A stretch of DNA of 57,834 bases, from the NCBI RefSeq assembly GCF_003236295.1, contig NZ_POTW01000035.1, forward strand, positions 1 through 57,834, read 5' to 3'. Shown here piece by piece: positions 53,330 to 57,316 of this stretch. Source of the DNA: Jiangella anatolica. Its GTDB lineage: Bacteria > Actinomycetota > Actinomycetes > Jiangellales > Jiangellaceae. The notes below the pieces were generated by a model. That model was given only the letters and a program-made list of their open reading frames with translations. It was not told the DNA's origin and ran no database searches. The stretch's first letter is position 1; every line of letters begins with the position of its first letter. The position numbers and the translations under genes are program-made.

Positions 53330-54310
53330 ATGACCGGGACTTCCGCACGGATGTTGGCGCTGCTGTCGCTGATGCAGTCGCGGCCCGCCTGGACCGGTAC
53401 TGAGCTGGCCGAACGGCTCGGCGTCAGCACCCGGACCATCCGCTACGACGTCGACCGGCTGCGCGAACTGGGCTATCCGGTCGACGGCGCGCGCGGCCCG
53501 GCCGGGCACTACCGGCTCGGCGCCGGCGCCCGGCTGCCGCCGTTGCTGCTGGACGACGAGGAGGCGGTCGCCGTCGCGATCGGGCTGCGCGCCGGCAGCG
53601 GCGTCGCCGGCATCGAGGACAGCAGCGCGCGGGCACTGGCCAAGCTGGAGCAGGTGCTGCCGCACCGGCTGCGCCGTCAGGTCGCCGCCATCCACGACGC
53701 GATGTCGCGCGGCCCGGAGAACACCGGCAGCAACGTCGAGGACCCGGTCGTCGACGCCGCCGTGCTCACCGCGCTGGCGGCGGCGATCCGTGACCACGAG
53801 CACGTCCGCTTCGACTACCACGGCCGCTCCGACGACACCCCGCCCCTCCTCGTCGAGCCGTACCGGCTGGTCAGCTGGCAGCGGCACTGGTATCTGGTCG
53901 GCCGCGACCCCGCGTCGGGCTGGCATCCCTACCGGGTCGACTGGATGACGCTGCGGATGCGGACCGGCCTGCGGTTCGCTCCGGCCGTCCTGCCGGGCGG
54001 CGACTACACGGCGTTCGTGCTGCGGGAGGTCGCGTCCGCGGGGTGGTCGGTGCACGCCCGGATCACCGTCCTCGCGCCGGCTACCGAGGTGCTGGCCCGC
54101 ATCAACCCCACCGTCGGCGTCGTCGAGTCGGTGGACGAGTCGACGTGTGTGCTGGTCACGGGCGCCGACTCGCTCGAGATCATCGCCGTCTACATCGGCA
54201 TGCTCGGGCTGGACTTCCAGGTGACCTCGCCGCCGGCGCTGGTCGAGCACCTGCGGGTGCTGGGGGAGCGCTACCGCCGCGCCGTCCCGCGGCCGGTCAC
54301 GGCGATCTGA
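53330..54310 (+). CDS. YafY-type HTH/WYL-domain transcriptional regulator
   Basis: The 326-residue protein has an N-terminal HTH (ARMLALLSLMQSRPAWTG, then LGVSTRTIRYDVDRLRELGY), a middle linker helix and a WYL domain (VEPYRLVSWQRHWYLVGRD) that binds a ligand or nucleotide. The C-terminal extension (about 215-320) is the typical WCX region. It is divergent from the epoxide hydrolase gene. ATG 53330 has no ribosome site and may be leaderless. Confidence 0.93.
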   Translation: MTGTSARMLALLSLMQSRPAWTGTELAERLGVSTRTIRYDVDRLRELGYPVDGARGPAGHYRLGAGARLPPLLLDDEEAVAVAIGLRAGSGVAGIEDSSARALAKLEQVLPHRLRRQVAAIHDAMSRGPENTGSNVEDPVVDAAVLTALAAAIRDHEHVRFDYHGRSDDTPPLLVEPYRLVSWQRHWYLVGRDPASGWHPYRVDWMTLRMRTGLRFAPAVLPGGDYTAFVLREVASAGWSVHARITVLAPATEVLARINPTVGVVESVDESTCVLVTGADSLEIIAVYIGMLGLDFQVTSPPALVEHLRVLGERYRRAVPRPVTAI

Positions 54311-54320
54311 CGCCGTAGGG

Positions 54321-54420
54321 TTGATCTTGCTATGCTGAGCGCGATGCCGATCCCTCTGCGGTGGGGTCGGAAGTGAGCCGAGGACCCCGGGGGCATACCC
54401 GGACCTCGGCTTCGCGCTGT
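54321..54420 (+). ncRNA. Structured RNA-like element A downstream of the DUF3800-like gene
   Basis: An extended -10 (TG-C-TATGCT, 54328-54336) is followed by segments that can pair. CCGATCCC (54347-54354) pairs with GGGGTCGG (54363-54370, one G-U). AGCCGAGG (54376-54383) pairs with CCTCGGCT (54404-54411), with CCGGG/CCCGG (54387-54391/54398-54402) inside. AGCGCGA (54338-54344) pairs with TCGCGCT (54412-54418) to close a three-way junction. A 10-codon frame MPIPLRWGRK (54344-54376) lies within. Copy B is related. Minus-strand reading ends the DUF3800-like gene here, so a terminator role is also possible. Confidence 0.5.
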
Positions 54421-54431
54421 CCGGGGCCCGA

Positions 54432-54995
54432 TCAGCCAAGCGTCACCTGGTGCTCGGTCAGTTTCGCGCCGATGAGCTCGCGGTACGCCGCGTCACCGCC
54501 CGCACCCGCGCTTGCCGCGCCGGCGACGATGTCGGCCGCCCACAGCAACGGCTCGTCGCCGGGGCGGGCATGGCCGATCCGGAGACCGCCCGGGACTATC
54601 CGGCGCGTCCGGAATCCGCCGATGACGTGGAGGTCACGCCGGTCGGCCGTCGGGTTGCGCGACTCCAGCCAGACCTCTTCCACGCCAGCCTCGGCCAGCT
54701 CGAACAACAGGGCAGCCATACAGTGTCGGCGGCCGCGCTCCTGCCGCCGCGGATCGACCGGCGCACCGATCGTCACGATCGGGAGGACAGGTAGGTCGGC
54801 CAGCAACGAGGCGGCGTCGCGGCGCTCGTACGGTTCCTTGTCGCGCCAGTGGAACCGCCGGCCTGGCCGTGGTTCGAGCGCCCGGACGGCGGCACGTACC
54901 GCAGCGGCGTCCACCCGCTCCAGGGCGACCGCGGCGAGGACGTAGACGCCGTCGTCGGTGCGGATGGACTCGTCGACATAGGCCAGCCAGCTCAC
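54432..54995 (-). CDS. DUF3800-like protein, copy A
   Basis: The 187-residue protein begins VSWLAYVDESIRTDDGVYVLAAV and ends near LLWAADIVAGAASAG, the VDES and (Q/W)xADxVAG positions of DUF3800 RNase H-fold proteins. Its function is unknown; DUF3800 proteins occur in defence and mobile contexts. GTG 54995 gives exactly the same length as copy B and aligns with it; an ATG at 55037 is the alternative. AGGAAG precedes the GTG closely. The gene is convergent with the WYL regulator and ends 14 bp from the element-A stem. Confidence 0.7.
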   Translation of the reverse strand: MSWLAYVDESIRTDDGVYVLAAVALERVDAAAVRAAVRALEPRPGRRFHWRDKEPYERRDAASLLADLPVLPIVTIGAPVDPRRQERGRRHCMAALLFELAEAGVEEVWLESRNPTADRRDLHVIGGFRTRRIVPGGLRIGHARPGDEPLLWAADIVAGAASAGAGGDAAYRELIGAKLTEHQVTLG

Positions 54996-55117
54996 ACTTC
55001 CTGTGGGTGGGTTTGGCGGGCCGTTGTGACAGCCCATGCGGAACGACGTGCTGTCGGTTGAAGGCGAGTCGCCGCGCCGTCGCCGGCGGCTAGGACGGGT
55101 CGCCGCGATCGTCCGCT

Positions 55118-55210
55118 CTTGCTAGCATCCTTGGTAGCCGCCCTTTTGCGATTGGGTAGGAAGTGAAGCCGAGAACCCCGGGGGTATACCCGGACCTCGG
55201 CTTCGCGCAT
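55118..55210 (+). ncRNA. Structured RNA-like element B
   Basis: This is a second copy of the hairpin unit. It has an extended -10 (TG-C-TAGCAT, 55120-55128). CCGCCC pairs with GGGTAGG as the short stem. GAAGCCGAG (55165-55173) pairs perfectly with CTCGGCTTC (55196-55204), with inner CCGGG/CCCGG. Compared with copy A the outer stem differs in sequence but still pairs (GAAGCCGAG against AGCCGAGG), which suggests the fold rather than the sequence is retained. The closing stem of copy A is not conserved. It sits 12 bp beyond the end of DUF3800 copy B. Confidence 0.5.
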
Positions 55211-55221
55211 GTCTGGCGCCG

Positions 55222-55785
55222 TCAGGTCAGCCGGATCCGGTGCTCGGTGAGGACGGGAGCCAGCAGGTCCCGGTAGGCCGGTTCGCCTCCTTCGGCCGCG
55301 CAGATCGCGCCGGCCACCAGGTCCGCCGCCCACAGCAGTGGCTCCTCGCCCGGGCGCCGATGACCGACCGGCAGGTCGCGTGAGATGACGCCGCGGGAGC
55401 GGAACGCGGCGATGGCCTGGACGTCGCGGCGGTCCAGCGCCGGGTTGCGCGACTCCAGCCAGACCTCGTCGACTCCGGCGGAGGCCAGGTCGAACAGCAG
55501 CGCCTCCAGGCACTGCCGCCGGGCGCGCTCCTGCCGCCTGGCGTCGACCGGGGCGCCGATCACGGCGACGGGGAGGACCGGCAGGCCGGCGACCACCGCG
55601 GCGGCGGCGAGGCGCGCGTCGGGCAACCGGTCGCGCCAGTGGAACCGGTGGCCAGGCCGAGGCTCGAGCGACCGCATGGCGTCGCGGACGAGCGGGGCGT
55701 CGGGCGCCCCGATGACCACCGCGGCGAGGACGTAGACGCCGTCGTCGGTGCGGATGGACTCGTCCACGTGGACCAACCAGCTCAC
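55222..55785 (-). CDS. DUF3800-like protein, copy B
   Basis: The 187-residue paralogue of the preceding gene starts VSWLVHVDESIRTDDGVYVLAAV from GTG 55785 and ends LLWAADLVAGAICAA then LLAPVLTEHRIRLT. The region upstream of the start also matches copy A (GGGCTGTCACAAACGGCCCG), so the whole unit was duplicated. AGGAGG ends one base before the GTG, unusually close; TTG ten bases further in is an alternative. It shares the block EVWLESRNP with copy A. Function unknown. Confidence 0.7.
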   Translation of the reverse strand: MSWLVHVDESIRTDDGVYVLAAVVIGAPDAPLVRDAMRSLEPRPGHRFHWRDRLPDARLAAAAVVAGLPVLPVAVIGAPVDARRQERARRQCLEALLFDLASAGVDEVWLESRNPALDRRDVQAIAAFRSRGVISRDLPVGHRRPGEEPLLWAADLVAGAICAAEGGEPAYRDLLAPVLTEHRIRLT

Positions 55786-55870: not shown

Positions 55871-57316
55871 GTGCCCAGACGTGTGGTGCGCCTGCGCGAC
55901 GAGGTGCTGTCGGCCGACGGTGAGACGCTGCGGGCGGGGATCCAGGCGATCCAGACCGAGCTCGACGTCACGCCGGAGTTCCCGCCGGACGTCGAGCAGG
56001 CGGCGCAGGACGCGGCGAAGAACCCGCGCCTGCCCGACCTCGACCGCACCGACCTGCCGTTCGTCACCATCGACCCGGCGACGGCGATGGACCTCGACCA
56101 GGCCCTCCACATCGAGCGGACCGACGACGGCTACACCGTCTATTACGCCATCGCCGACGTCGGCGCGTTCGTCAGCCCCGGCGACGCCATAGACGAGGAG
56201 GCGCACAGGCGCGGCGAGACGCTGTACGGGGCGGACTCGAAGGTGCCGCTCTACCCGAAGGCGCTGTCCGAGGACGCCGCCTCGCTGCTGGCCGACCAGG
56301 TCCGGCCCGCGCTGCTGTGGACGATCGGGCTGGACGCCGACGGCGACACGCTCGCCGCCCGCGTCGAGCGGGCCCGGGTCCGCAGCCGGGCCAAGCTCTC
56401 GTACGCCGACGTGCAGGAGCAGCTCGACCACGGCGCCGCCGACCCGGTCTTCACGCTGCTGAAAGAGGTCGGTGAGCGACGCCTCAGGAAGGAGGCCGAG
56501 CGCGGCGGGGTCTCGCTGCCGCTGCCCGAGCAGGAGGTCCGGGTCGACGGCGAGCACTGGTCGCTGGAGTTCCGCCAGCAGCACCCGGTCGAGCAGTGGA
56601 ACGCGCAGATCTCCCTGCTCACCGGCATGACGGCGGCCAAGTTCATGGTGGAGGCCCGCACCGGCCTGCTCCGCACCCTCGCCCCGGCCGACCCGCGCGA
56701 CGTCAAGCGGCTGCGGCGCACGGCCAGAGCGCTGCGCATCGACTGGCCGGAGAACCAGAGCTACCCCGACTTCGTCCGTTCCCTCGACCCGGCGACGTCC
56801 GCCCACGCCGCGATGCTGGTCGCCTGCACGCGGCTGCTGCGCGGCTCCGGCTACGTCGGCTTCGCCGGCGAGCTCCCGCAGCACACCGGCCACTCGGCCA
56901 TCGCCGCCGACTACGCGCACGTGACGGCGCCGCTGCGGCGGCTGATCGACCGCTACGCCGGCGAGATCTGCGTCGCCCTAAGCGCGGGCGACGAGGTGCC
57001 CGGCTGGGTGATCGACCGGCTCGGCGAGCTGCCGAAGACGATGCAGGGCTCCACCCGCCGAGCCAACCAGTACGAGCGCGCCGTCCTCGACCTCGTCGAG
57101 GCGGCCGTCCTGCACCCGTACGTCGGCGAGGCCTTCGACGGCGTCGTCGTCGAGGTCGACGACCGCGACCAGCGCCGGGGCGACGTCACGATCCGCGATC
57201 CCGCCGTCGAGGCGCCGATCAGCCACCAGAGCACGCTGCCGCTCGGCACCGACGTGCGCGCCCGCCTGGCCGCCGCCGACCCGGCGACCCGGACGATCCG
57301 GTTCGAACTGACCTGA
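55871..57316 (+). CDS. RNB-domain ribonuclease
   Basis: The 481-residue protein is an RNase II/R-family 3'-5' exonuclease, short because it lacks the N-terminal cold-shock domains of RNase R. The catalytic patch reads TIDPATAMDLDQALH with Asp68, Asp74 and Asp76; Gln77 stands where RNase II has the fourth Asp. YADVQEQL, HTGHSAIAADYAHVTAPLRRL and the S1-like C-terminus (DGVVVEVDDRD) follow. GTG 55871 has GAGGGGAGC upstream. I recall the Asp-to-Gln change as common in actinobacterial members, so activity may be retained. Confidence 0.9.
   Translation: MPRRVVRLRDEVLSADGETLRAGIQAIQTELDVTPEFPPDVEQAAQDAAKNPRLPDLDRTDLPFVTIDPATAMDLDQALHIERTDDGYTVYYAIADVGAFVSPGDAIDEEAHRRGETLYGADSKVPLYPKALSEDAASLLADQVRPALLWTIGLDADGDTLAARVERARVRSRAKLSYADVQEQLDHGAADPVFTLLKEVGERRLRKEAERGGVSLPLPEQEVRVDGEHWSLEFRQQHPVEQWNAQISLLTGMTAAKFMVEARTGLLRTLAPADPRDVKRLRRTARALRIDWPENQSYPDFVRSLDPATSAHAAMLVACTRLLRGSGYVGFAGELPQHTGHSAIAADYAHVTAPLRRLIDRYAGEICVALSAGDEVPGWVIDRLGELPKTMQGSTRRANQYERAVLDLVEAAVLHPYVGEAFDGVVVEVDDRDQRRGDVTIRDPAVEAPISHQSTLPLGTDVRARLAAADPATRTIRFELT

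What the first reader, a model, noticed from the sequence alone, without database searches (positions are those of the whole stretch)
54321..55785. Tandem duplicated unit of a DUF3800-like gene plus a structured hairpin element
Two 187-residue DUF3800-like paralogues each end 12-14 bp from a related element of about 90 bp with an extended -10 box, a short stem-loop and a long GC hairpin. Between copies the outer stem changes but still pairs, and sequence homology also covers the region upstream of each gene. The plus-strand RNA would be convergent with the gene on the minus strand. This could be a bidirectional terminator, a small RNA regulator or an RNA-protein (toxin/antitoxin or defence-like) pair; I know of no description of it.
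Basis: partly seen in the sequence, partly recalled or inferred. Interest (0 to 1): 0.65.

Follow-up and report, generated by a model that had tools for sequence, protein, structure and literature searches.

The report
Small RNA paired with DUF3800 nuclease
Two neighbouring genes for an RNase-like protein of unknown function each sit tail-to-tail with a tiny, strongly conserved structured RNA that seems to have its own promoter; the same RNA accompanies this protein in many actinobacteria and plasmids, and some phages carry the RNA without the protein, hinting at an RNA-controlled nuclease system and a viral counter-measure.

Summary
Each 187-aa DUF3800-like gene (minus strand) converges with an RNA gene of about 80 nt: extended -10, short hairpin, GGAAGUG linker, long hairpin, CGCG, short U-rich tail. 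The host is Jiangella-like; its five elements lie beside its five clear DUF3800-like genes. A covariance model finds the RNA in 51 of 393 class genomes; 76 of 94 elements have DUF3800 within 1.5 kb, 67 convergent. All 12 plasmid loci fetched have it. Covariation is strong (23 of 24 pairs change on both sides), G-U against A-C counts put the RNA on the strand opposite the gene, and a -10 box stands at a fixed distance. Rfam 15 has no match, although DUF3800-linked RNAs are a known kind. The protein's predicted fold is RNase HII-like. Unexpectedly, of 21 phage or viral records chosen for carrying the RNA, five of them complete Streptomyces phage genomes, 20 have no detectable DUF3800. Best reading: RNA and nuclease form one module, the RNA probably restraining the nuclease, with phage copies as decoys. 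Structure, strand, promoter-like box and linkage are shown; mechanism is inferred; no transcript has been seen.

The parts
54328..54336 (+). extended -10 box (TGCTATGCT) of RNA copy 1
   Evidence: sequence; position fits the family-wide -10 peak
54343..54422 (+). RNA gene copy 1 (covariance model match 54336-54420); ends inferred, not mapped
54347..54370 (+). stem 1 of copy 1 (54347-54354 with 54363-54370)
54369..54375 (+). conserved GGAAGTG of copy 1 (GG closes stem 1, AA is the linker, GTG starts the base of stem 2)
54373..54416 (+). stem 2 of copy 1 (outer stem, internal loop, inner stem) and the invariant G after it
54432..54995 (-). DUF3800-like gene 1 (187 aa), predicted RNase HII-like fold
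55120..55128 (+). extended -10 box (TGCTAGCAT) of RNA copy 2
55134..55212 (+). RNA gene copy 2 (covariance model match 55126-55211); ends inferred
55222..55785 (-). DUF3800-like gene 2 (187 aa)

Best explanation
Each unit is a two-part module: a small structured RNA with a transcription unit of its own (about 80 nt; sigma70-type -10 box; two hairpins joined by GGAAGUG; the second hairpin with CGCG and a short U-rich tail probably ends the transcript) and, tail-to-tail with it, a gene for an RNase HII-like nuclease (DUF3800-like). SHOWN by sequence comparison: the conserved structure, its strand, its promoter-like box, its linkage to the gene, and its occurrence without the gene in phages. PREDICTED: the protein fold. 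INFERRED: the RNA is made separately from the mRNA, binds the nuclease and keeps it inactive or specific, so that the pair works like an RNA-antitoxin/nuclease or abortive-infection module; phages that carry only the RNA use it as a decoy that occupies the host nuclease.
For: Linkage: 5 of 5 elements in the host genome lie beside a DUF3800-like gene; of 94 elements in 393 class genomes 76 have DUF3800 within 1.5 kb, 67 convergent, median gap 22 bp to the domain match; 12 of 12 plasmid loci fetched, out of 46 records. Structure: 111 elements, 108 distinct; 92.4% of cells paired, 23 of 24 pairs changed on both sides, score 0.584 against 0.194 shuffled (0 of 500) and 0.034-0.115 slid; in an alignment not fitted to the structure 11 of the top 30 co-varying column pairs are structural, 0.26 expected. 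Strand: 271 G-U against 59 A-C cells. Promoter: TANNNT in 75 of 107 against 8.8 expected. Protein: mean pLDDT 95.8; RNase H2/HII/H3 chains fill the top of the structural comparison, best Z 13.2, 2.8 A over 151 residues; D6, E7, E109, D153 invariant in 18 proteins. Solo phage copies: of 21 records that carry the RNA, 1 has DUF3800.
Against: No toxicity, binding, nuclease activity or expression has been shown. 8 of 84 apparently intact genes have no detected RNA at the threshold used (one of them, L122, has a marginal match at E 0.021), which a strict antitoxin should not allow. RNA is found beside 20 of 27 broken genes, less often than beside intact ones (76 of 84; Fisher p 0.048), so there is no excess retention of the RNA after gene loss. 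18 of 94 bacterial elements have no recognised gene within 1.5 kb. The 20 solo viral records fall in only about five lineages by my grouping, two of them weak. PADLOC gives only single weak hits, E 0.017-0.047. The unit in the window lies between a regulator gene and an RNase II-type gene, not in a defence island. Foldseek's own E-values are not significant (best 0.013).
Confidence: 0.5

Rival explanations
1. The RNA is an active cofactor or guide: the nuclease needs it as a scaffold to act or to find a nucleic-acid target, as other RNase H-fold nucleases use RNA.
For: Predicted RNase H-type fold with conserved acidic residues; tight linkage; a TPR-DUF3800 protein accompanies a branch of Cas12a2 (PMC10910872, passages read).
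Against: No long unpaired variable segment that could be a guide: 24 pairs in about 75 nt, and the unpaired AA between the stems is near-invariant. Solo RNAs in phages without the nuclease fit a decoy better than a guide.
Confidence: 0.2
2. The RNA is a trans-acting regulatory small RNA or a substrate processed by the nuclease, with no inhibitory role; phages borrowed it for their own regulation.
For: Free-standing transcription unit by sequence; bacterial copies without a recognised gene, 18 of 94, one pair syntenic between two genomes; in phages the RNA keeps one place among replication genes.
Against: Does not explain why the RNA lies beside so many divergent DUF3800-like proteins.
Confidence: 0.2
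3. The hairpin is only a terminator shared by the gene and its neighbour, or a 3' UTR element of the DUF3800 mRNA.
For: It lies at the 3' end of the gene, median gap 22 bp to the domain match; hairpin 2 is GC-rich and followed by a short U-rich tail on the plus strand.
Against: Strand-specific pairs, -10 box at a fixed distance, conserved first hairpin and linker, copies without DUF3800; on the gene's own strand only UUCC follows the hairpin.
Confidence: 0.05
4. The RNA is a cis-antisense regulator of the DUF3800 mRNA's 3' end.
For: Convergent orientation in 67 of 94.
Against: What is conserved is a fold, not complementarity to the coding region; copies in phages have no DUF3800 target in the record; some loci have the RNA upstream and divergent.
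Confidence: 0.05

Closest known systems
DUF3800-associated RNA motifs (Rfam DUF3800-I RF02969, DUF3800-IX RF02968 and relatives; Weinberg et al. 2017)
   Same: Structured RNA repeatedly found beside genes of the DUF3800 domain.
   Different: No Rfam family of this kind matches the window or 37 related loci; DUF3800-I gave no match in 149 genomes of the phylum, but nothing rang in the controls either, so that search is uninformative. Orientation, promoter and phage distribution could not be compared: the 2017 paper is not held.
Type III toxin-antitoxin systems (ToxIN, CptIN, TenpIN)
   Same: As inferred here: a nuclease with a small structured RNA; phages are known to acquire ToxI mimics that escape the system (passages of PMC5086642).
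   Different: Type III: RNA of tandem repeats, upstream, same operon, terminator between. Here: single-unit RNA with its own -10 box, convergent, RNase HII-like predicted fold.
RNA anti-CRISPRs (Racr)
   Same: Phages carry solitary copies of an RNA that in bacteria belongs to another system (abstract of PMC10651486).
   Different: Here the bacterial partner is a DUF3800-like protein, and inhibition is not shown.
RNase HII / RNase H2
   Same: Predicted fold, adjacent N-terminal D-E, further conserved acidic residues.
   Different: 17% identity in the structural alignment; different Pfam domain; accompanied by an RNA gene.

Membership tests
DUF3800 (PF12686) | Match to the Pfam profile over the curated cut-off | tested here: inconclusive
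   Window gene 1 scores 19.6-20.1 bits against a cut-off of 21, gene 2 none; the third copy in the genome scores 21.5, over the cut-off; 9 of 18 aligned relatives match at E up to 0.1.
Rfam DUF3800 RNA families | Match to the family covariance model | tested here: not met
   No gathering-score match in the window, no such family at E up to 10 for the element region, at E up to 1 in 20 loci or up to 0.1 in 17 loci.
Kind: DUF3800-associated structured RNA | Covarying RNA consistently beside DUF3800 genes | tested here: met
Type III toxin-antitoxin | Tandem-repeat antitoxin RNA upstream of the toxin in one operon with a terminator between | tested here: not met
   Single-unit RNA, opposite strand, 3' of the gene; definition from passages of PMC5086642.
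Type III toxin-antitoxin | Toxic endoribonuclease inhibited by the RNA | not testable with these tools
   Needs bench work.
RNase HII-like fold | RNase H2-type fold with a DEDD-type active site | tested here: inconclusive
   Predicted model only: Z 13.2, 2.8 A over 151 residues to 1uax_A, Foldseek E 0.013 at best; acidic residues invariant, but their superposition on the RNase HII site was not checked; E109 in place of an aspartate is my inference.
RNA anti-CRISPR-like phage decoy | Solo copy inhibits the bacterial system | not testable with these tools
   Only presence without the gene was shown.

The most novel reading that the evidence does not exclude
DUF3800-like proteins are RNase HII-like nucleases held in check by a dedicated free-standing small RNA, forming an unnamed RNA-controlled defence or addiction module found across Actinomycetota and on their plasmids; several phage lineages, including 184-200 kb Streptomyces phages, carry solitary copies of the RNA (sometimes two different subtypes in tandem) as antidotes.
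Probability: 0.33. Interest if true: 0.87.

Novelty: new variant of a known kind. Interest (0 to 1): 0.7.

Why it matters
DUF3800 is a widespread domain for which I saw no tested function (passages of three papers and listings of the others that name it), and it is known to keep company with RNAs. This family gives a compact, testable unit: an RNA with inferable ends, one gene, a predicted fold and candidate active site, and phages that grow on the laboratory host Streptomyces lividans and carry the RNA alone. That makes the question 'what does DUF3800 do with its RNA' directly testable, and could add a new RNA-controlled nuclease system or a new RNA-based phage counter-measure.

Tried and rejected
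Rejected: coding element (copy 2 has a 1-nt insertion after its GTG and the family shows pair changes); known Rfam RNA; tRNA/tmRNA; bidirectional terminator. Led nowhere: Pfam on gene 2, PHROGs and PADLOC on the protein, PDB sequence search (two chance-level hits), the protein in named phages (none at E up to 0.01), DUF3800-I in the phylum (nothing rang anywhere). The phage gene convergent with the solo RNA in Frankenweenie (148 aa) has no Pfam or PHROGs match; in Kela another, 97-aa gene takes that place, so it is not an obvious fixed partner. Insertion site: of 12 Jiangella genomes, three (G008, G009, G015) have the WYL regulator and RNase II-type gene as neighbours without the unit, but G015 keeps an N-terminal remnant and G008 a piece of the 5' leader (my reading), so this looks like loss, not an empty target site.

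Limits and dropped rows: genome searches over 40 genomes used strict filters, and the protein search scored at most 8 candidates per genome, so counts are lower bounds; one gene missed in this way was added. E-values of my models are rough. One search was given 100 loci chosen for having DUF3800 (or a remnant, L073); L051, L052, L082, L087, L089 (no gene) and L081, L090, L112, L114, L164, L172, L191, L197 (near-duplicates or to keep to the limit of 100) were left out. Elements without the exact GGAAGTG (L132, L138, L146, L147) were kept in the count of 94 although some may be false.

Full report
WHAT IS THERE. The window comes from a Jiangella-like actinobacterium: the nearest named relatives of the protein found are in Jiangella rhizosphaerae (74% identity) and J. 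muralis (72%). Between a WYL-domain regulator (53330-54310, +) and an RNase II-type gene (55871-57316, +) lie two DUF3800-like genes on the minus strand, 54432-54995 and 55222-55785, 187 aa each and 64% identical. At the 3' end of each, on the opposite strand, is the element: extended -10, short hairpin, GGAAGTG, long hairpin, CGCG. The genome holds five DUF3800-like genes with E below 1e-5 and five elements, one convergent with each; a sixth protein match at E 0.033 is at chance level.

HOW FAR IT REACHES. I collected 35 distinct elements from loci found around homologues or by element similarity in the order and class, aligned them and built covariance model R1 from 23 of them. R1 found the element in 51 of 393 genomes of the class, 25 of 137 genera, 94 places at E up to 1e-3. 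A profile of 18 DUF3800-like proteins (A5) found the protein in 60 of 393 genomes, 32 genera. Comparing coordinates, 76 of 94 elements have a DUF3800-like gene within 1.5 kb: 67 convergent (median gap 22 bp to the domain match, 62 within 63 bp), 8 divergent, 1 on the same strand; 18 have none (a first count with merged genes gave 75). At an expected 0.001 false hit per genome most of the 18 should be real, but E-values are rough and some lack the linker and look doubtful. Three of the 18 lie beside remnants of the gene (L141 and L144 clear, L131 weak, E 0.012); one pair is syntenic between two genomes (L142, L145). Model R2, rebuilt from 58 matches, found elements at E up to 1e-3 at 27 of the 42 merged DUF3800 loci that R1 had missed, and a marginal one at L122, E 0.021. 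Counting genes separately, 96 of 111 have an element: 76 of 84 apparently intact and 20 of 27 broken ones (intact or broken was judged from length of match and stops, and is rough). In a sample of the phylum R2 hit 8 of 296 genomes at E up to 1e-4, four of them outside the class, of which three have DUF3800 beside the RNA (L206, L207, L208) and one has not (L202).

PLASMIDS. tblastn found the protein on 46 plasmid records, all below 60% identity, in Clavibacter, Mycobacterium, Rhodococcus, Streptomyces, Kocuria and others. I fetched 12 of the 46, two of them near-identical; all 12 carry the RNA near the 3' end of the gene, E 8e-13 to 0.0016, 11 convergent and one (L173) on the same strand as the gene.

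IT IS A STRUCTURED RNA. On 111 elements from loci with DUF3800 (108 distinct; A6), 92.4% of cells pair, 23 of 24 pairs change on both sides in some sequence, and the covariation score is 0.584 against 0.194 in shuffles (0 of 500 as high) and 0.034-0.115 when the partners are slid. A6 was fitted to the model's structure, which favours it; I therefore realigned the raw sequences with MAFFT, took 66 clusters and ranked 2818 column pairs by corrected mutual information: 11 of the top 30 are structural pairs, 0.26 expected. RNAalifold on the smaller set A4 predicted largely the same helices, with 14 of 17 pairs changed on both sides.

STRAND, START AND END. G-U pairs fold only on the plus strand, A-C only on the gene's strand. 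I counted 271 against 59, and 33 of the 59 stand at a single ill-fitting closing pair; the U.G pair at the base of stem 2 occurs in 105 of 108. TANNNT starts 13-17 nt before stem 1 in a sharp peak; 75 of 107 upstream regions have one starting between -22 and -12, against a mean of 8.8 and a maximum of 19 in 500 shuffles. That puts the start of transcription near the foot of stem 1. After the closing CGC come an invariant G and a U-rich stretch (80, 56, 72, 35 and 44% U at positions 3-7), after which U falls to 16% and less for the next four positions; on the gene's strand UUCC follows the hairpin and then no U-run. So the unit reads promoter, stem 1, GGAAGUG, stem 2, weak terminator: about 80 nt. 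No transcript has been seen.

THE PROTEIN. Pfam's DUF3800 profile matches only weakly. The predicted structure is confident (mean pLDDT 95.8, pTM 0.91). Foldseek gave no significant hit (best E 0.013: human MutSbeta and an RNase H1). The second-look aligner, which re-scores Foldseek's list, put 21 chains from entries named RNase HII, H2 or H3 and one chain of the E. coli ribonucleotide excision repair complex in its top 22 rows, Z 13.2 to 9.0, with RNase HI at about 7.8. D6, E7, Y16, H47, R87, C90, E109, D119 and D153 are invariant in 18 proteins. That D6, E7, E109 and D153 form the site is inference from the fold; DUF3800 was earlier described as an RNase H fold with a catalytic rearrangement (passages of PMC10910872).

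PHAGES. A pattern of the two conserved strands gave 40 viral-contig loci; R2 confirmed elements in 14 of the 40 at E up to 1e-6, two each in L224, L231 and L241, and gave a weak match in L247 (E 0.0057). Of these loci only L231 has DUF3800. One of the elements matched seven named Streptomyces phages (Frankenweenie, Kradal, EhyElimayoE, Quantum, Satis, Kela, JustBecause); in the five I fetched R2 scores 59-67 bits, between small genes of unknown function and one gene (two in Kela) away from a DnaB-like helicase gene; in Kradal a 129-nt hypothetical gene is annotated over part of it. With two further contigs from a second, broader pattern (L289, L341), I searched 21 whole records: the RNA was found in 21, DUF3800 (A5, E up to 1) in one. 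The 21 were chosen because they carry the RNA, the contigs may be fragments, and many are close relatives: nine contigs and the named phages share one neighbourhood; L224, L241 and L246 share a flank by eye, and L241 and L246 have an integrase; L217 is a contig with terminase, portal and head genes; L289 (47.5 bits, no hallmark seen) and L341 (39.4 bits, endolysin nearby) are weaker. Against 76 of 94 bacterial elements with a gene, 1 of 21 records gives Fisher p = 5e-11, but lineage by lineage, by my grouping (1 of 6), only p = 0.002. Tandem solo RNAs of unlike subtype (L241, L224) are what one would expect of a set of decoys, but other readings remain.

HOW IT PROBABLY WORKS. A nuclease-like gene with its own separately transcribed RNA, spread over chromosomes and plasmids, often broken or lost, and phages carrying the RNA alone: this looks like a module in which the RNA binds the nuclease and restrains it, with phage copies as antidotes, as ToxI mimics are for ToxIN (passages of PMC5086642) and Racrs for CRISPR-Cas (abstract of PMC10651486). 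Binding, toxicity and defence are inferred. Against it: 8 of 84 intact genes without a detected RNA, no excess retention of the RNA after gene decay, and no defence annotation. A cofactor role or a regulatory role is the main alternative.

NOVELTY. DUF3800-associated RNAs are a known kind (the 2017 paper of Weinberg et al. was not held, and is known to me from recall and from a reference list). The present family is not in Rfam 15 as tested. In the library, 11 papers contain 'DUF3800', one of them also 'RNA motif' and seven also 'toxin'; I read passages of three and saw only listings of the others. None that I saw describes this RNA, its promoter, or solo copies in phages; subscription papers and preprints were not searched.

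Noticed in passing
L131 (G020:C1:1309000-1314000): A solo element with a weak, apparently frameshifted DUF3800 remnant lies beside what reads like a CRISPR array and a cas3-like frame; identification is by eye.
   Followed up: no
L024, L025, L019, L086: Some loci carry two or three elements around one gene, including one upstream of it; G011 has a three-gene, four-element tandem array.
   Followed up: partly
L128, L129 (G373), L077 and L130 (G271), L121, L125: Elements lie divergently upstream of the gene instead of convergently at its 3' end.
   Followed up: no
L173 2973-3058: Mycolicibacterium aubagnense plasmid: the RNA lies downstream on the same strand as the gene.
   Followed up: no
L152 (G014) and L159 (G006): The DUF3800 gene at the window's orthologous locus is broken while the RNA beside it is among the best-scoring copies.
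   Followed up: partly
54794-54818 and 56273-56297: 25-nt inverted match, 96% complementary, between DUF3800 gene 1 and the RNase II-type gene; both encode a DAASLLAD peptide.
   Followed up: no
L022 2296-2439: FMN riboswitch (Rfam RF00050) next to the DUF3800-RNA unit in G006; ordinary.
   Followed up: no
L372 2629-3075 (-) and the matching place in L373, L375, L376: A phage protein of unknown family (148 aa in Frankenweenie) sits tail-to-tail with the solo RNA, as DUF3800 does in bacteria; in Kela (L374) a different small gene lies there.
   Followed up: partly
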